From a bacterium (GTDB lineage Bacteria; Electryoneota; RPQS01), in assembly GCA_023382385.1 (NCBI GenBank), contig JAHDVH010000001.1, positions 248,001 through 312,000 on the forward strand: a DNA stretch of 64,000 nt, written 5' to 3'. Shown piece by piece: positions 6,791 through 51,169 of the stretch (the first letter of the stretch is position 1; every line of letters begins with the position of its first letter). The notes beneath the pieces were generated by a model. The model was not told the DNA's origin. It worked only from the letters and a program-made list of their open reading frames with translations, and did not search any database. The position numbers and the translations under genes were made by a program.

Positions 6791-6865
6791 TGGCACCCCC
6801 GACGGGACTCGAACCCATGCTCCCGGCTCCGGAGGCCGGTGCTCTATCCACTGAGCTACGGGGGC
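6791..6865 (-). tRNA. tRNA-Arg (anticodon CCG), CCA encoded
   Basis: The minus strand folds as a cloverleaf. The acceptor is GCCCCCG with CGGGGGT (first pair G-U), the D arm GCTC/GAGC, the anticodon arm CCGGC-CTCCGGA-GCCGG, and the T arm holds TTCGAGT. The anticodon CCG reads the arginine codon CGG. The 3' CCA is encoded. Only 9 bases separate CCA from the next start codon. Confidence 0.96.
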
Positions 6866-42213: not shown

Positions 42214-45179
42214 CAACGCACCACAGCAATCTTGACTTCTGCTGAGTGGGTTTGCCCACCTCCAATGGCCTCGACACGACCAATATAAACACCGCTCTGA
42301 ACTCCTGACGCCTTCCACGGAATCTCAAACGCACCTGCTGCAGATGAGGAACCGCTTACCTCCGCAATTCGCCTGCCCGCAATGTCAAAGATCGATACGC
42401 TCGCTCTTGCTGCGTATGGAAGTGTTAGTCGGAAATTTGCAACACTATTGCTTGGGTTTGGCCAGACGTAAACAAAACTCTCCCGCTCATGTACTTGTGG
42501 CCTCAATGGTCCGACGACAATGATGTTATCCGGTGCATGGTAGACTACATTAACAGTACCTTCAGGCGAAATTGGAAGCCGCATTACATTCAGCGTCAAC
42601 TGCTCGCCGTTCTTGACTTCCGTAAAAATATGGTAGCGGTGCTCAGAGTTGCTTAGACGAATCAACTTCGGATCGCCGTTGATTGCGAGCGGGAAGTCTG
42701 GGAACCTGTTCGTATTGTGATCATATGCCACCAATTCACGGCCAGTTAGACTGCTCTCAGCGTTTGAAAGCACAACCAATCGCAATATATCCGGATCGCC
42801 ATCGAAATTCAAATCAAAAACTTCGCTTGAAGTTACATCATTCAAGGCAAAATTCTCTCGTGGCACACGGGCTGCGCCGTCGACACCTCCGCCATCAACT
42901 CTCCCGTCGCCGTCCCAATCGACTTCCGGCGGAAGACAATCACTAACGTCGCATATCAACTCTCCGGTCTCCGCGTCAAGATAGCCGACCCCGGGGAAAA
43001 ATATATTCGATCGCGTCACTTCCTGGACGATGACAGGATAGTCTAGCAGTTGGAAAAACTCAGCACTCCACTGGAGCAAGAGAGAGGTCGAAATTTCAAA
43101 TCGATGCACCGAGTTACTATCCCATCCAATGAGATATCGCGCGGGGGGAATCTCAAGATATGTGAAGTTAGGAATATATTGCAGTGAATCAGGAATCGTT
43201 CCAAGGAGTTCAAGGTTTTCGTCGTAAACGGCACCTAAATGACTTCCGGTGAACACATAGCGTGTCGCACCTGTGGCATCCCGACAAATAAACACCTTTT
43301 CAGCACTAATTGCCCCCTGTGGCAGCGGCCGAAAGACAGAATCCATACCATGCTCAGTTCTCTGAATCAAGCCGATCTGACTGCCAACGAAAGTCAATAC
43401 CTTGGCAATTTCAATCGTGGTCTTGCCTGTATTGCTCAAATGGGAACCTGACGGAACCGTCAGTTGATAGACGGCACCGCTGTCAGCCACAAGGAACAAT
43501 GAATCGTGTGCTTGCACATATACTTCGCGTCGCCCGTCCTGATCGAGATCAGCGGCGGACCAGTGTGCCGCGGAATCACTAACATGAATCGGGAAACCAC
43601 GTTCAACAAGCGTTCCTCGAATTCTACATGTCATGACAGGAGCAACACTGGAGAAGTCAGATATCTCGAGGAATGTATATGCATGGTCACTTAACCGAGC
43701 CGAAGGCCGTGTGTTATCATTGAATCGAACAAAAACAGTACCGCCGTTGGCATCGCGGAATGCGCGATTCTCACGGAACCAACAGTCTTCTTGAATCCCA
43801 AGTTCGGTACCCGATCCGGATGAGGCAAAGCCGTACTCGCGACCAATGTCCTGCGAGCCGTCGGCTTCAACTAAATCAACTCCACGCCTATTGGGATCAA
43901 TATTTACGCGGTTTCTGCCAATCCCTTCTGCAATCACTTGCTCATTTACGTGCCAAATAAGAATACCGCTTCCAGGGATACCGTAGTCATAGTGCGTAGC
44001 TCGTACCGGCACGCGGAATTCATCTTCCACGAAAAGATTCCCGCCGCGATCAATGTGCATTGTCCTGCCATCTCTATCCTCAACAGTCACAAATCCTATG
44101 GAATCTGCATCTGCATCGCGGTTTTCGAGCAAGTAGTATTCGCTTCCGCTTACCGGGACCTTCACAATCTTGGTCCCGGACTCGCCAAAACGCCCAATCC
44201 GTACTGTGTCACCGATTCCAGAAGGGTGAATGACTTGCGGAACATCCCAACCCATATAGATTCTCGACCAGGCGTCCGGCAACGCGGGAACGATGGCATT
44301 CACGTTTCCCGATCCTTGATCCATCATGCCCCAACGGCCGATTCCGCTCGCACCAGTTTCTGTGTTATAAAGATCCGGCATCCCGAGCCAGTTCCCAAAC
44401 AGTTTGATCATGACCCCATTCAATGAAAGTTCGATCCCAAGGTCAAGCGTCTCGTTCTGATTCTGCGATTCCGGCAAAATCAGTCCGCGTGTGACTCCGG
44501 CAGGAATCGCGCCGCTTATACGTGTTAGATCATCCTCCGAAATATATGCGGAAGGAATATCAAACGGCGTGTTGTCAAAACCTACATTGAAGTCTTTTCC
44601 CACTCCTGCATGGAATAGGATAATGGCATCGTATTCGGTAAAGTCTATGTCGGTCTCAGCTAACCTCATTGACTCGACAAAGAGCTCGACCAATCGCATA
44701 TTCAGTAGTGCGGTATCCGAATTGTAGTTGTAATGCCACATCGGATGCGCTAATTGATACGCTTCCGTGGCACCATCCGGATACACGTCAAGACTTGCAA
44801 ACGATATGGATCCTCGCGACGCGGTGGAATAGTAGTCGGCGAGAAACGCCAGGTGATCCTCGAAGTATGCTTTGTCATGTGGAAGTGGATCGATTCTTAA
44901 AGTGTCAGGAAGTCCCGAACCGAATGTTCCATTTCCTGTTGTTCCGGACAGTTCATCGGTCTGAAACTCGACGCGAACTGCACACAGTCGAATCGGCAGA
45001 CCGACTGGCCAACGATCATCAAGCCGCGATGGCGCACATTGCACGAAGTTATTCGGCAGCGCCGTTCCTGCCCATGCAGGCGACAAGGACGACAGCAGTA
45101 CTGCGAGAAGGACAATAAACAGGTTAGAACTCCACGGAAAGCGAATAGCGCATTGTGTCAGTGAGAGGATGATTCTCAC
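42213..45179 (-). CDS. M6-type protease homologue with dead active site and T9SS-like C-terminal domain
   Basis: The 988-residue protein starts with GTG and a signal peptide (cleaved near 38). The region around 259-285 aligns with the immune-inhibitor-A (M6) signature HExGHxLGLPDLYD and GIGxWdlM, but reads KLFGNWLGMPDLYNT and GIGRWGMMDQ: the two His and the Glu are replaced by Lys259, Leu260 and Asn263. FG-GAP/VCBS-like stretches follow (DLDQDGRREVYV, DWDGDGRVDG, DLNFDGDPDI). The C-terminus (VWPNPSNSVANFRL...SGVYIGRVEA) is the type A sorting or FlgD-like domain of type IX substrates. Its start overlaps PorV by 56 bases. Likely a surface-exported, non-catalytic protein. Confidence 0.75.
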   Translation of the reverse strand: MRIILSLTQCAIRFPWSSNLFIVLLAVLLSSLSPAWAGTALPNNFVQCAPSRLDDRWPVGLPIRLCAVRVEFQTDELSGTTGNGTFGSGLPDTLRIDPLPHDKAYFEDHLAFLADYYSTASRGSISFASLDVYPDGATEAYQLAHPMWHYNYNSDTALLNMRLVELFVESMRLAETDIDFTEYDAIILFHAGVGKDFNVGFDNTPFDIPSAYISEDDLTRISGAIPAGVTRGLILPESQNQNETLDLGIELSLNGVMIKLFGNWLGMPDLYNTETGASGIGRWGMMDQGSGNVNAIVPALPDAWSRIYMGWDVPQVIHPSGIGDTVRIGRFGESGTKIVKVPVSGSEYYLLENRDADADSIGFVTVEDRDGRTMHIDRGGNLFVEDEFRVPVRATHYDYGIPGSGILIWHVNEQVIAEGIGRNRVNIDPNRRGVDLVEADGSQDIGREYGFASSGSGTELGIQEDCWFRENRAFRDANGGTVFVRFNDNTRPSARLSDHAYTFLEISDFSSVAPVMTCRIRGTLVERGFPIHVSDSAAHWSAADLDQDGRREVYVQAHDSLFLVADSGAVYQLTVPSGSHLSNTGKTTIEIAKVLTFVGSQIGLIQRTEHGMDSVFRPLPQGAISAEKVFICRDATGATRYVFTGSHLGAVYDENLELLGTIPDSLQYIPNFTYLEIPPARYLIGWDSNSVHRFEISTSLLLQWSAEFFQLLDYPVIVQEVTRSNIFFPGVGYLDAETGELICDVSDCLPPEVDWDGDGRVDGGGVDGAARVPRENFALNDVTSSEVFDLNFDGDPDILRLVVLSNAESSLTGRELVAYDHNTNRFPDFPLAINGDPKLIRLSNSEHRYHIFTEVKNGEQLTLNVMRLPISPEGTVNVVYHAPDNIIVVGPLRPQVHERESFVYVWPNPSNSVANFRLTLPYAARASVSIFDIAGRRIAEVSGSSSAAGAFEIPWKASGVQSGVYIGRVEAIGGGQTHSAEVKIAVVR

Positions 45180-46170
45180 CGGCCGTTAGGTAGCTGAAGT
45201 CAAATCTATAGGTACTATACTTAAGCGAGACGCCGAACGTATACGGAAAGACGCGGCCTAAGTGGTCGTTGTAGTATCCGCCACGAAGCCCCACAAGTGT
45301 AGAATACCAGTACTCTGCACCGAGATGCCAGATCAGGGACTTGACAAGATCTCCGTCACCCCAAGCCGAAAAAAGCGCTTCATAGAATTCATCCGAACGA
45401 CCAAGATTGTCACGCTTTACCAATTCCTTGTCAACGTCCGTTGCCACGGTCAGCTTATTGTACTCTTGGTCCAGAACCTTAAACGCAAGACCAAGCTTTA
45501 ACGTCGTTGGCAGTGGATCGGCTTGCGCTCGATCAATATACGACACTTTCGGACCCATGTTAGAAAGGTTTGCACCCAAGGACAGCCCTGGCATGAATGT
45601 AGCTTTGTAAAGCAAGCCGAGATCGGCCGCTATTGCCGTTGCTACGCCCTTCCCTTGCTCTGCACCGGCGCCTACTGGAGACAGATTACTATATGCCAGC
45701 TTTAGCGCGACGCCCATAGAGAGATTCTCATTCACCAAAGCACCATATGTACCTGTGACTGCCATCTCGTATGACGAAAATGTTCCAAGATCCTCACCCG
45801 AGGGACCAGTCCTTTGAGTCTCACCGAGGTTCAGAAACATCACATTGCCACCGACGGTTCCCCACTCTGGTATATAGTACGAACCACCAACAAACGCGTA
45901 ATAGAGGTCCGACAAATTGAATTGCGGTAACCAGCGGGAATACATCATTGTCACTTCGTTCTTGGTTTGGAAACCAAGACCGGCGGGATTCCACCACGTC
46001 GCCGTTGCATCATCAGCAATTGCAACAAACGTCTCTCCCATTCCTGCAGGTCGCGCTCCGGGTGCAATCTTGAGGAAAAGCAGCGTCGCTTGACTGACAC
46101 TGGCCGCATAAACTTGCGAAGCCATTAAGCCAGCAAGAATGACGCAGATTGCAAACATCCTTCTCTTCAT
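45124..46170 (-). CDS. porV: PorV/PorQ-family outer-membrane protein
   Basis: The 348-residue protein has a signal peptide (cut near residue 22) and then LKIAPGARPAGMGETFVAIADDATATWWNPAGL (in pieces ~32-65), the clear hallmark of the PorV/UPF0164 family. The rest is a barrel of the FadL type and ends in Phe (SLSVEF), the classical BamA signal. In Bacteroidota PorV shuttles type IX substrates to the PorU sortase. An AGGAG ribosome site precedes the start. It lies 32 bases after porU and overlaps the next gene. Confidence 0.88.
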   Translation of the reverse strand: MKRRMFAICVILAGLMASQVYAASVSQATLLFLKIAPGARPAGMGETFVAIADDATATWWNPAGLGFQTKNEVTMMYSRWLPQFNLSDLYYAFVGGSYYIPEWGTVGGNVMFLNLGETQRTGPSGEDLGTFSSYEMAVTGTYGALVNENLSMGVALKLAYSNLSPVGAGAEQGKGVATAIAADLGLLYKATFMPGLSLGANLSNMGPKVSYIDRAQADPLPTTLKLGLAFKVLDQEYNKLTVATDVDKELVKRDNLGRSDEFYEALFSAWGDGDLVKSLIWHLGAEYWYSTLVGLRGGYYNDHLGRVFPYTFGVSLKYSTYRFDFSYLTAGENHPLTDTMRYSLSVEF

Positions 46171-46202: not shown

Positions 46203-49200
46203 TCAGCGTAGTATAACGAGTTTACCCGTGGCTTCGGCACTAAAACCTCTTTCATGTTGGGCAATCACTCTATAGAAGTAAACACCGTTTGCGAGTTCGC
46301 GTCCTTCACGATCACGGCCATGCCAAGGCCGATTGCTGTTGCTATTATATAGTTGACGGACACCCAGACCGTCAATTTCGTCAACTTGCTTGCCTGTCAT
46401 GGTGTAGATACGGATCCTAACGTCCCTCGCACCGTCCTGAGTCAAAGAATAAGTGAAGTAAGTCTCATCGCTCATTGGGTTTGGCCAATTCAGCACGTCG
46501 CGGATGGCAAATCCTTCCTCTGCGCTCTGACCAACAACAAAGTCGAATCTCTTGAGATTAAGATTGTTGAATGAGTCCCAAGCTTCTATCGTCATTTGAT
46601 GTGGTCCATCTGAGAAAGGTCCGAGCGTACGCACCAATTCTCCTTCAATGTGACTGTTTATGTCATAATTGAAAAACTGAGTGATATCCTCAGCTTGTGC
46701 GTCATCGATACGGACTGTAATCCGATGGCCAACTTCACCTGAGAGGTTGATGCCCGATTCATCCGATAGTCGGACGATAAGTCGTGGTGTTCTACTCACC
46801 TGATCACCACTTCTAAACGATGTATTCTCGAGCCACGCCTCGATTTGCGGCGGAATCGAGTCCGTAACCACCGCCGCCTGACTTGCGATACGCAGCGGTT
46901 GTTCAATTCCTATTCCATCGGCGGAGTCCTGTTCACTTTCCGACTTGCCATAAAAGTACAAACTCACTTTCGCATTCTCGCCGCCATACTGGATGTCCCG
47001 GGGGACTCGAAATGTCACATTAAATCGTCCATTCACGATGGATGAACGGCCGCGGAAAATAGCATTTCCGGGGAGACCGTAATAGTATGGAATCTGCGAG
47101 GGTACGCTGCAATTCGTACGTAACGGGAAATAATACGCTGCAGAATCTTCTGAATCGAAGACTCGAGCTTCAACAATACCATGAAAGTCAGTCCATACAT
47201 CCTCATCAAGAGAGCGATCAGTCGGTAGCTTCTTGAGATTTGCCTCGAGAGTCCCACTCGATTGCGACACATACCCGCTCAGCGTAAAAAGTGCTCCTGC
47301 CTGAAGTGAATCATCACGTTGGTCAACGTATGCATAGTACTCGGGAGTTGCTAATCGCAGCACCGGATTTCCAAGACAATGATACAGGCTGTTATTGGAC
47401 CTCAATGGCTTGACAAGCTGGAGTGCCTCGCCAAGACTCTGTCGGCGATCTATCCCCTGCCTGAACACTTCCTCGTAGAATACTTCTGTGAGCTGCTGAT
47501 TCTGGTTCACGAATGTAAATCGTGTCGCTGCAATGCATGCGACACTGCCAACATATCGTCCGCCCAGGAGCAGCTCAGGAAAACATCTCTCATTCGGTCG
47601 GTCGAAGCCTCCCCACGTGCACGTCCCAGCCACGATTACCGGCCAAACGCGTTCATTTCTGATCATTGGAAAGTCACGATCCATTACAAACATTTGCTCG
47701 TCAGTCCAGACGCGCTCGTTTCCGTGACCGACATAGTTGATCAACAACGTGCCGTTGTTTATTGTTTCCAGCAGGTCTCTTGTCGCATCAGGCTTCTGAG
47801 AGGTCGAGCTGGATTGACGGAAAGGATAGAGAATGCCATATATCTTTCGGAACGTGAAGTAGTTTGGAAGAACTTCATTTATAAGATTCTCAGAATCCGT
47901 TGTATGGAAGTCTTCCGCACAGCGTCCTTCCTTCCATTCATCGTCGGCGACAAATGTTGCTGTATTCTTCCACGCACCGTAGAATGGCCTCAAAGCATAC
48001 TCGACAGTCTTCTCCACTATCGCTCGCACCTCTTGCGCCGATTGAACTGGCCAGCGACCTGAGATCATATCAAGAAGCGTCGCGCTGTCATCAAAATCCA
48101 CATAGTAATCATCCGTGCAGACCCCCCCATTCTCCCAGGGAGGCATCCAATTATCATCGGTATTTGAAAGCAGATTGCGATAGTCATAGTCACCGTCACC
48201 TACAAACAACACATACCTCGGCGGCTCCGCCTGCCCAGCCGGACCTCGCCAATTCAGATAAGCATATCGCAAGAAGTTACGAATTGCAACCGGATCGTAG
48301 ACGCCGCCCGAAAACTCGTCAAAGATGTCACTCAACTTGACCCGTACGGCCCGAAGAGGCTCCTCTTCATATTGCGCGTGCATGTCCAGCAATGGCTCAA
48401 GTTCCTCGTACCATGCGGCATAAGTAACAATAATGATACCGGCCTCATTCTGTGAACTGCGCAAGCGCGCGTAGTCTGCCGCATCAAAGACCTTGCGGCC
48501 GCGGAACAAAGGAGTACGAATTCTGCTCGGACTGGTCGCCCAATACCGGCGCAATGCCCCTGCTTGCGATGAATCCGAAAAACTGCTTCCACGCCTGACA
48601 CGCGGCATTAGCGGATCAGATACGTCAAGTAGATACGAGCTCGCATCTAGACCGGTAACCTGATACCCGTACCAATCAGACCCGCTTGGCGAAATTATCT
48701 CAATCGTTCCGGAAGATGTTTGTACAGCCCGCTCATACTCGACTTCAATATAATTCAGATGAATCTGGCCGCTTGCGGACCGATTAGTCAGCCTGATGAC
48801 ATTGTTTCCTGCGGCGAAGACGCCGGCCGGAACCTGAATTACGAGCGGATCGGAAAATACCCCTTGGCTGACGTACTGGTCATTCACCCTGACATCGAAT
48901 CCCCCGCCAATTCCCGAACCCCTCATTCTCAAGCGAAGCATACCGCGACCGGTGTTGGCCGCTTCAAGGTTGATTGAAAACGACCGCTCCGTTTGGGCGT
49001 CCAGTGTGGCCATATACCAGATGATGCCTGAATTGGTCTGATCTGAGCCTGCCGCGTAGATATACAGATCCTGGTCCACGTAATTGCGTCCTGTAATCGT
49101 GGATACCTGAGTCGAAGATGACGAAAACTCCGGTAGTGTTCCCATTCGCAGTCCAGGCATCCCCGCAGGATCGACGCCGACCCAATAGACATTTTCTGTG

Positions 49201-50159
49201 GCATATGGGCTTGCGTGACCGTGGTCACCAAGCAAACTGCCGTCAGCGTAGTCATAGCCCTTGAGACCTTCTGCGTAGAATAGAATTCGGTCACCGGAGT
49301 CCATTCTGCCATCTCCGCCATCTTCCACAAGGATTGCATTCTCTCGAAGAAGCGAGTCCGGAACGGACAACAATCCTGACGGGAGCATCCGACCACCATT
49401 ACCAAACACCTTGATTTGACTCGATGTGACGCCAATCACAGGAACACCTTGCTGCTGCAACCACTCCGCTGTCATGGCATGCAATCCAGCTTCCGTAACT
49501 CCAAGCTTGTAGAGCTGAAAATCTGGCCAAGATTCAGTATCATCGAGCCTGCTAACGGGTGACACAGGCAATCTCCACCAGCGGGTCGCGTTATCGCCAT
49601 TTAAGGTAAGTGCGCGCAGAAGTTTCTCTTCGCGCGGATATGGTCCTATCGGTACGGTCGCACCCTCAAAAATCACCTCTAAATCAAGAGATGTCAGGAT
49701 TTTGGTACTCCCCCCTTCGGTCTCGGCAACTCTCACAGCAATATGGGCGATCTGAAATCCGCGCCACGCTTCAACAGCGCGCAACGTGACGGCCGACTTT
49801 GGTGCTCTTTCGTCTTCATTTGCAGCAACCTCAGCGTCCGGTAACAGTATCTCTGAGACTTGGTACCTTATTCCCCGATTAACAATCCTCGGAGTTGTTC
49901 CGATCGGACACGCCACAAGCAGGACTTGAACAGGAATTAGTCTCCCGTTTTCCGGCATCCATTCCACGGACGTTATAAGCGATTCCAATCTTGTGTCTGG
50001 ACCTTTAGAACCCAGATCAAGATTGGGCGACCAAAGTGCTTGAAACCTTTCTGCGGTCGACTCAAGAACTACCGCTGACGATGCCAGAACCAAACTTGTA
50101 ACGCATGTTCCAAGCAGGTAGGCCAAAAGTCCAAGATATCTGTAAGATTGCTTCGTCAT
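46203..50159 (-). CDS. porU: PorU-like type IX sortase, peptidase C25 (gingipain) family
   Basis: From the ATG at 50159 the protein has 1318 residues. A signal peptide (~1-28) is followed by a long N-terminal beta region. The C25 domain shows the catalytic dyad: His812 in INYVGHGNERVW and Cys847 in VIVAGTCTWGGFDRP, as in PorU of Porphyromonas. The C-terminus has a FlgD-like/CTD domain (NWPNPMSDETYF...GVYFYRV). PorU cleaves the C-terminal signal of type IX substrates and attaches them to lipid. The frame is open for 15 more codons to an ATG at 50204, but these would encode the terminator hairpin. No good ribosome site is seen at either ATG. Intact dyad. Confidence 0.85.
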   Translation of the reverse strand: MTKQSYRYLGLLAYLLGTCVTSLVLASSAVVLESTAERFQALWSPNLDLGSKGPDTRLESLITSVEWMPENGRLIPVQVLLVACPIGTTPRIVNRGIRYQVSEILLPDAEVAANEDERAPKSAVTLRAVEAWRGFQIAHIAVRVAETEGGSTKILTSLDLEVIFEGATVPIGPYPREEKLLRALTLNGDNATRWWRLPVSPVSRLDDTESWPDFQLYKLGVTEAGLHAMTAEWLQQQGVPVIGVTSSQIKVFGNGGRMLPSGLLSVPDSLLRENAILVEDGGDGRMDSGDRILFYAEGLKGYDYADGSLLGDHGHASPYATENVYWVGVDPAGMPGLRMGTLPEFSSSSTQVSTITGRNYVDQDLYIYAAGSDQTNSGIIWYMATLDAQTERSFSINLEAANTGRGMLRLRMRGSGIGGGFDVRVNDQYVSQGVFSDPLVIQVPAGVFAAGNNVIRLTNRSASGQIHLNYIEVEYERAVQTSSGTIEIISPSGSDWYGYQVTGLDASSYLLDVSDPLMPRVRRGSSFSDSSQAGALRRYWATSPSRIRTPLFRGRKVFDAADYARLRSSQNEAGIIIVTYAAWYEELEPLLDMHAQYEEEPLRAVRVKLSDIFDEFSGGVYDPVAIRNFLRYAYLNWRGPAGQAEPPRYVLFVGDGDYDYRNLLSNTDDNWMPPWENGGVCTDDYYVDFDDSATLLDMISGRWPVQSAQEVRAIVEKTVEYALRPFYGAWKNTATFVADDEWKEGRCAEDFHTTDSENLINEVLPNYFTFRKIYGILYPFRQSSSTSQKPDATRDLLETINNGTLLINYVGHGNERVWTDEQMFVMDRDFPMIRNERVWPVIVAGTCTWGGFDRPNERCFPELLLGGRYVGSVACIAATRFTFVNQNQQLTEVFYEEVFRQGIDRRQSLGEALQLVKPLRSNNSLYHCLGNPVLRLATPEYYAYVDQRDDSLQAGALFTLSGYVSQSSGTLEANLKKLPTDRSLDEDVWTDFHGIVEARVFDSEDSAAYYFPLRTNCSVPSQIPYYYGLPGNAIFRGRSSIVNGRFNVTFRVPRDIQYGGENAKVSLYFYGKSESEQDSADGIGIEQPLRIASQAAVVTDSIPPQIEAWLENTSFRSGDQVSRTPRLIVRLSDESGINLSGEVGHRITVRIDDAQAEDITQFFNYDINSHIEGELVRTLGPFSDGPHQMTIEAWDSFNNLNLKRFDFVVGQSAEEGFAIRDVLNWPNPMSDETYFTYSLTQDGARDVRIRIYTMTGKQVDEIDGLGVRQLYNSNSNRPWHGRDREGRELANGVYFYRVIAQHERGFSAEATGKLVILR

Positions 50160-50164
50160 CTCGT

Positions 50165-50202
50165 AAAATAAAAAGCCGAACCGGGCGAGCTGCCCGTTCG
50201 GC
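50165..50202 (-). terminator. Intrinsic terminator directly before porU
   Basis: On the minus strand an 11-pair stem (GCCGAAC plus GGGC, loop AGCTC, one bulged G) is followed by TTTTTATTTT. The T run ends 5 bases before the porU ATG. It is a textbook terminator in an unusual place: between a promoter candidate and the gene it should serve. Confidence 0.8.
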
Positions 50203-50342
50203 ATATATAGCCATTAGCGGAGCGAGCGAACGCCAACGTTAGAGGAATAGGAATATCACACAAAAGATGACAAGGCCAACTTGGCCACGCCTATAGAAAC
50301 CTCTAACGAAGGATCATTACGCTCCAATCAAAATTTCGGAAA
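50165..50342 (-). ncRNA. Candidate structured small RNA or regulatory leader of porU
   Basis: A promoter candidate, a nested fold and an intrinsic terminator follow each other on the minus strand, giving a predicted RNA of ~178 bases. The stems are: GGAGCG/CGCTCC (50320-50325 with 50219-50224), an 11/12-base bubble, CGTTAGAGG/CCTCTAACG (50300-50308 with 50237-50245), ATAGG/CCTAT (50290-50294 with 50247-50251) and a GGCCA/TGGCC hairpin (50274-50286). The fold, with its central bubble, recalls 6S RNA in outline, but no 6S sequence is recognised and the core is short. It might instead be a riboswitch or attenuator for porU. No known riboswitch motif was recognised. Confidence 0.5.
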
Positions 50343-50348
50343 CTTCTA

Positions 50349-50377
50349 AATATAAGCACTTGCGTTGGTTTACGCAA
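50349..50377 (-). promoter_or_regulatory. Promoter of the small RNA / porU leader
   Basis: TTGCGT and TATATT on the minus strand are 17 bases apart, with both boxes identical to those of the tRNA-Arg promoter. TTGCGT is also one arm of a 6-base inverted repeat (50360-50377). In the remaining gap to the HD-GYP gene (50378-50480) I see no gene or clear terminator. Confidence 0.6.
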
Positions 50378-50480: not shown

Positions 50481-51137
50481 TCAACCTGGTTGGCGAACGA
50501 AAATGCGTGAGTCGTGTAAATTGGGTCCCTCGGACTCTAATTCTTCAACAAGAGCATAAAAAGCGGCAGGCCTAAACTGCCTTCCGACTTCACTTTCCAT
50601 CCACCCGATGGCTTCTTCTGCTGTCAACGGCTCTCTGTAGGGACGCTCGTGACATAGCGCATCAAAAGCATCCGCTGCTGCTAATAGACTACTTTCAATC
50701 AGAATCTCATCCCCCCGTCTTCCCGCCGGATAGCCAGATCCATCATGTCTCTCGTGATGCTGGAGTATGATCTCCCGTGCACGTTCGAATTTGGTGAAAG
50801 GAATTAGAATTTCTGCACTTAAGGCAGGATGACGTGCAATCTCGCTTCGCTCGTGTTTGGTTAGTCTGCCGGACTTATTGAGCACGTGGTCTGGCAGCGC
50901 CAGCTTTCCGATGTCATGAAGAAGGCCAGCCAACAAGATGTTTTGTTGAGCATCGCTCGCCAGCCCCAATCTCGCGGAGGCTCGCCGCGCCAAGTCCCCA
51001 ACTCTCAAACTATGAAAGTATGTCGGCTCATCCCTGAACCTCAGTGCAGTTAATAAGGTCTGGAGCACAGCCCCCTCTGCTGCACTGAGGCCTGCCGCCG
51101 CAATAATGATTGGAAAAGCGGGTGTCTTTCGATTCAT
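50481..51137 (-). CDS. HD-GYP domain protein
   Basis: From the ATG at 51137 the protein has 218 residues; a TTG six codons up is open. It is a single HD-GYP domain: FHSLRVGDLARRASARLGL (~40-58), LLHDIGKLALPDHVLNK (~72-88), QHHERHDGSGYPAG (~130-143), and ADAFDALCHERPYR (~160). The HD pair, GYP and further metal histidines are intact. Such domains break down cyclic di-GMP or related dinucleotides. No receiver or sensor domain is attached. It starts 32 bases after the ABC ATPase gene ends, and ends the downstream run at the porU gap. Confidence 0.88.
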   Translation of the reverse strand: MNRKTPAFPIIIAAAGLSAAEGAVLQTLLTALRFRDEPTYFHSLRVGDLARRASARLGLASDAQQNILLAGLLHDIGKLALPDHVLNKSGRLTKHERSEIARHPALSAEILIPFTKFERAREIILQHHERHDGSGYPAGRRGDEILIESSLLAAADAFDALCHERPYREPLTAEEAIGWMESEVGRQFRPAAFYALVEELESEGPNLHDSRIFVRQPG

Positions 51138-51169
51138 TGCACCCGTCTTTCGCAAAGGTAGGGCCAGAT

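What the first reader, a model, noticed from the sequence alone, without database searches (positions are those of the whole stretch)
50165..50377. Promoter, nested RNA fold and intrinsic terminator packed directly ahead of porU
The minus strand has a TTGCGT-17-TATATT promoter, then four nested or stacked stems with a central 11/12-base bubble, then a strong terminator whose T run stops 5 bases before the porU ATG. This looks either like a stand-alone ~178-base RNA (6S-like in outline) or an attenuated leader. An alternative 6-base pairing, CGTTCG (in the bubble's 3' strand) with CGAACG in the terminator arm, could act as an anti-terminator. I recognise no known riboswitch.
Basis: partly seen in the sequence, partly recalled or inferred. 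Interest (0 to 1): 0.72.

Follow-up and report, generated by a model that had tools for sequence, protein, structure and literature searches.

The report
Conserved RNA attenuator ahead of porU
In a little-known bacterial phylum, the gene for a secretion-system protease (porU) sits behind a conserved folded RNA that ends in a transcription stop signal, so the cell most likely decides whether to make the protease by letting RNA polymerase read past that stop or not.

Summary
In detail: promoter, nested hairpin and intrinsic terminator occupy the porU leader, with the terminator ending 5 bases before the ATG. It is not a one-genome oddity. All 11 complete porU leaders of the same order (12 counting one cut by a contig end) have it once, directly ahead of porU. 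Each has a promoter with a 17-base spacer, an invariant GGAG-N4-ATG, an in-frame stop at codon 4-5, a hairpin and a terminator. Swap tests show the 5' and 3' hairpin strands co-evolve (p=0.00015). A second family of the phylum has a related-looking element ahead of porU in all 9 genomes. There a competing pairing between the hairpin's 3' strand and the terminator arm is also supported (p=0.0026), which is the layout of a transcription attenuator. Where porU lies in an operon behind another gene, no such element was found there or elsewhere. Rfam has no match; 6S, CsrA and a specialised NusG are not supported. Best reading: an undescribed cis-acting attenuator of a type IX secretion gene with an unknown signal, possibly read by a ribosome on a four-codon mini-ORF in the window's order.

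The parts
50349..50377 (-). sigma-70-type promoter TTGCGT-17-TATATT
   Evidence: 17-base spacer conserved in all 12 genomes of the order, TTGACA/TTGACT in most; start site near 50341 is inferred
50322..50325 (-). invariant GGAG (Shine-Dalgarno-like; base of P1)
   Evidence: invariant in 12 of 12 genomes; paired with probability of at least 0.9 in 9 of 11 folded leaders
50303..50317 (-). possible mini-ORF ATG ATC CTT CGT TAG (M-I-L-R-stop), 4 bases after GGAG
   Evidence: start codon and an in-frame stop at codon 4-5 in all 12 genomes of the order; absent in other families
50219..50325 (-). P1 helix GGAGCG/CGCTCC enclosing the hairpin
50237..50308 (-). P2 helix CGTTAGAGG (50308-50300) / CCTCTAACG (50245-50237); 5' strand holds the conserved UUCGNUAGAGG core
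   Evidence: strand-swap test p = 0.00015 over 11 genomes; pair table
50246..50299 (-). variable apical part of the hairpin
50175..50202 (-). intrinsic terminator stem-loop GCCGAACGGGC..GCCCGGTTCGGC (one bulged G)
   Evidence: arms co-vary in relatives, p = 0.00005
50165..50174 (-). T-rich tail TTTTTATTTT of the terminator
46203..50159 (-). porU (peptidase C25), the gene behind the terminator
   Evidence: Pfam PF01364, E = 1.9e-74; orthologues in 38 of 39 genomes of the phylum
45124..46170 (-). porV, next gene downstream
   Evidence: Pfam PF19572, E = 2e-24
50481..51155 (-). HD-domain gene upstream; neighbour of the element in this order, not in other families

Best explanation
A cis-acting transcription attenuator of porU. 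Transcription starts about 7 bases after the -10 box. The leader folds into a long hairpin, 5' strand A with GGAG, AUG and UUCGNUAGAGG pairing with 3' strand B, and an intrinsic terminator (arms C and D) then stops most transcripts just before the porU start. When strand A is held by something, B is left free, the terminator is weakened, and polymerase reads on into porU-porV. Shown by sequence: the promoter, the A:B hairpin, the C:D terminator, the fixed place directly ahead of porU, and in a sister family (f3) a competing B:C pairing. Inferred: that termination is regulated, and in which direction. In the window's order the likeliest thing to hold A is a ribosome on the four-codon mini-ORF ATG..TAG; in f3, which lacks the ATG, some other factor would have to act. 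The mini-ORF step alone has about 0.3 probability.
For: The element is found once per genome ahead of porU in all 12 genomes of the order where the site is covered (one cut at a contig end), and in 9 of 9 genomes of family f3; one f3 member (G026) was found by a model built without it. Own A:B pairing is stronger than strand-swapped pairing (-26.7 against -21.9 kcal/mol, p = 0.00015), C:D p = 0.00005; in f3 A:B p = 0.001 and B:C p = 0.0026. In f3 B:C is 90% paired, with one compensated change (G029) and a register-shifted change in G032. Leader folds without the terminator have mean z = -2.1 over 11 genomes. The terminator ends 5 bases before porU here and there is no room for another promoter. 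In family f7 porU follows another gene directly and no element is found at porU or elsewhere.
Against: No transcript or termination data. In the window's own order the B:C antiterminator is only weakly supported (p = 0.07) and A:C not at all (p = 0.65). The homology of the f1/f2 and f3 elements rests on place and a short motif; the f3 model does not hit f1/f2. Codon pattern inside the mini-ORF is not coding-like: third bases are among the most conserved, and Shine-Dalgarno sites look scarce in this genome (22 of 39 long ORFs without one).
Confidence: 0.7

Rival explanations
1. A discrete small RNA made from its own promoter and terminator that acts in trans; porU is only its neighbour and is expressed by leaky read-through.
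For: Strong promoter and strong terminator; the 5' strand is conserved beyond what pairing needs.
Against: Always directly ahead of porU although the upstream gene differs (HD gene in f1/f2, Trm112-like gene in f3 and f6), single copy, and not found elsewhere in f7, where porU has no leader.
Confidence: 0.15
2. A metabolite- or ion-binding riboswitch of an undescribed class controlling porU by termination (a special case of the best explanation in which the signal is a ligand).
For: Conserved core UUCGNUARRGG, terminator control, competing pairings in f3.
Against: The conserved nucleotides lie mostly on one strand and no multi-stem aptamer is seen; no Rfam riboswitch matches.
Confidence: 0.2
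3. A 6S RNA.
For: Roughly 180 bases, long hairpin with a central bubble.
Against: No Rfam 6S match even at a permissive threshold; separate 6S-like hits elsewhere in four genomes of the order; GGAG and AUG constraints and the porU linkage are not 6S features.
Confidence: 0.02
4. Processive antitermination by a specialised NusG (RfaH, LoaP or UpxY type) recruited at the conserved 5' core (CGGTAG resembles the ops element).
For: Short conserved core ahead of a terminator; the resemblance to ops is recalled from memory.
Against: One NusG-domain gene or none per genome at E <= 1e-5; core not ops-like in f3 and f5.
Confidence: 0.04

Closest known systems
Terminator-type transcription attenuators with mutually exclusive hairpins (trp/his operon type)
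   Same: Short ORF at the 5' strand of the first hairpin (f1/f2), hairpin A:B, terminator C:D, and in f3 a competing B:C pairing
   Different: ORF of only 4-5 codons with no run of regulatory codons; downstream genes are not amino-acid biosynthesis; B:C not clearly supported in f1/f2
Terminator-controlled riboswitch candidates in Rfam
   Same: Structured 5' leader with promoter, conserved core and intrinsic terminator before one gene
   Different: No match to any of 4227 Rfam families; conserved bases mainly on one strand; no multi-helix aptamer seen
6S RNA (RF00013)
   Same: About 180 bases, long hairpin with central bubble
   Different: No model match; cis-linked to porU
PorXY-SigP regulation of the type IX secretion system in Porphyromonas gingivalis (PMC4800418, PMC8265659)
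   Same: Controls expression of type IX secretion genes
   Different: Two-component system and sigma factor acting on promoters, not an RNA leader

Membership tests
6S RNA (RF00013) | covariance-model match | tested here: not met
   No match at gathering score in the window or at E <= 10 in the leader
6S RNA (RF00013) | product RNA synthesis from the central bubble | not testable with these tools
   needs biochemistry
Known Rfam riboswitch or leader families | match to any of 4227 models | tested here: not met
Transcription attenuator (kind, not a homology family) | intrinsic terminator between the promoter and the gene | tested here: met
Transcription attenuator (kind, not a homology family) | competing antiterminator pairing | tested here: inconclusive
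   supported in f3 (p = 0.0026; 90% paired), weak in f1/f2 (p = 0.07)
Transcription attenuator (kind, not a homology family) | condition-dependent read-through | not testable with these tools
   needs transcription data
Leader-peptide attenuator | conserved translated short ORF over strand A | tested here: inconclusive
   GGAG-N4-ATG and a stop at codon 4-5 in 12 of 12 f1/f2 genomes, kept in G012 despite a 1-base insertion; absent in f3-f6
CsrA-regulated leader | CsrA encoded in the genome | tested here: not met
   CsrA found in 1 of 39 genomes, not in the window's genome
Specialised-NusG antitermination | second NusG-domain gene | tested here: not met
   at most one NusG-domain hit per genome at E <= 1e-5

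The most novel reading that the evidence does not exclude
A phylum-wide, previously undescribed RNA switch for the type IX secretion system: an attenuator whose sensor is a ribosome loading on a four-codon ORF in one order and a different factor in sister families, so that secretion-protease output is set by translation status or an unknown signal.
Probability: 0.25. Interest if true: 0.75.

Novelty: new variant of a known kind. Interest (0 to 1): 0.55.

Why it matters
In the paper abstracts seen here, regulation of type IX secretion is a two-component system and sigma factor in Porphyromonas (PMC4800418, PMC8265659). A conserved RNA attenuator at porU in an uncultured phylum would be another layer of control. 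It offers a defined element, with strands A to D mapped, that can be tested in a reporter without culturing the organism.

Tried and rejected
6S RNA: no model match in the leader; sub-threshold 6S-like hits lie elsewhere. Rfam in the leaders of other families: only matches far below gathering scores, taken as chance. CsrA binding at GGAG: CsrA absent in 38 of 39 genomes. Specialised NusG: no second copy at E <= 1e-5. MAFFT alone misaligned the 3' strand in f1/f2, so RNAalifold saw only the terminator; the strand-swap test replaced it. f3 model outside the phylum: none of about 350 other genomes has a convincing match; one weak hit at E = 0.002. Paper searches for a porU riboswitch and for type IX secretion in KSB1 found nothing relevant.

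Full report
What is there. On the minus strand between an HD-domain gene (50481-51155) and porU (peptidase C25, start 50159) lie a TTGCGT-17-TATATT promoter, a 5' segment, a long hairpin and a terminator whose T-rich tail ends at 50165, 5 bases before the porU ATG. The fold is better than chance (z = -3.4) and stays so without the terminator (z = -3.4). It missed that the 5' strand of the bubble carries GGAG-N4-ATG-ATC-CTT-CGT-TAG.

Relatives. The window lies in a genome of a phylum represented by 39 genomes here. In the window's order, all 11 genomes with a readable porU start have the same layout. A twelfth, G004, has the 5' half at a contig end. All 12 have a promoter with an exact 17-base spacer, GGAG, 4 variable bases, ATG, a core exactly 11 bases after GGAG, and an in-frame stop at codon 4 or 5. 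Sequence is otherwise poorly conserved (mean column identity 58%), and a nucleotide search finds only G006.

Is the hairpin real? Alignment alone misplaces the 3' strand, so I compared each genome's own 5'/3' strand pairing with pairings swapped between genomes. Own pairs are stronger for the hairpin (A:B -26.7 against -21.9 kcal/mol, p = 0.00015; inner part alone p = 0.003) and for the terminator (C:D, p = 0.00005). Per-position pairs change between G-C, A-U and G-U types (individual folds, so biased towards pairs). Mean z of the leader without terminator is -2.1 over 11 genomes.

Other families of the phylum. In family f3 (9 genomes) porU is again preceded by promoter, GGAG, a core TTGTTAGGG or TTCGTTAGGGG, a hairpin and a terminator, G035 being the most divergent. 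The upstream gene is a different one, a Trm112-like gene by my reading. A covariance model from 8 of them finds the ninth (G026, E = 4.7e-17) and exactly one place per f3 genome. No convincing match appears in about 350 genomes outside the phylum. In f3 the 3' strand CCAGAUGACCC can instead pair with the terminator arm and loop GGGCAUCUG. This pairing is 90% kept, with a compensated change in G029 and a shifted one in G032, and the swap test supports it (p = 0.0026; A:B p = 0.001). The alignment shuffles alone are not significant (55 of 500), so the support is moderate. Families f4-f6 show GGAG and core-like pieces ahead of porU in several genomes, with more divergence. In f7, porU follows the Trm112-like gene with little or no gap, and neither the pattern nor the f3 model finds a convincing copy at porU or elsewhere.

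Mechanism. The terminator is so close to porU that in this genome porU must be transcribed through it. With strand A paired to B, the terminator is free to form. If A is occupied, B is released; in f3 B can then pair with the terminator arm and prevent termination. That is an attenuator. In the window's order the candidate occupant of A is a ribosome: GGAG-N4-ATG is invariant although neighbouring bases vary, AUG is kept even where it is unpaired, and G012 has an inserted base yet still meets an in-frame stop (TAA). Against this, third codon positions are among the most conserved, Shine-Dalgarno sites look scarce in the genome, and f3 has no ATG there. I give attenuation 0.7 and the ribosome step 0.3.

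Compared with what is known. Rfam 15 has no match. 6S is not supported, and separate sub-threshold 6S-like hits exist in four genomes of the order. CsrA is encoded in one of 39 genomes only, and no second NusG-type gene was found at E <= 1e-5. Known type IX secretion control in Porphyromonas is PorXY-SigP (PMC4800418, PMC8265659, abstracts only), which is a different kind. Paper searches found no RNA leader at porU in the open library. I file it as a new variant of the attenuator kind, without membership in any described RNA family.

Limits. No transcripts were available. Homology between the f1/f2 and f3 elements is inferred from place and a short core, not from a shared model. Phylum sampling is 39 genomes, mostly draft.

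Noticed in passing
L063, L064, L065, L066 (match in each locus): Full-length but sub-threshold 6S RNA (RF00013) matches in G010, G011, G007 and G001 (29-36 bits, E 1e-5 to 6e-4); none in the window's genome at E <= 0.001.
   Followed up: no
L261, L263, L264 (upstream of porU): Three f5 genomes lack a T run before porU and share a hairpin followed by TTACCAAGGA-like sequence at the porU start, suggesting translational rather than transcriptional control there.
   Followed up: no
L265 (upstream of porU): In G014 (f4) CAACTTGTAA near the leader start is complementary to TTACAAGTTG just before the porU ATG, a simple hairpin over the start region.
   Followed up: no
window 50202-50204: An ATG in frame with porU lies at the foot of the terminator, giving a longer ORF from 50204; the signal-peptide-like start at 50159 is more likely.
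   Followed up: partly
G032:C246:4290-4448: CsrA is encoded in only one (G032) of 39 genomes of the phylum.
   Followed up: no
window 6794-6865: tRNA gene on the minus strand, the only Rfam match in the window.
   Followed up: no
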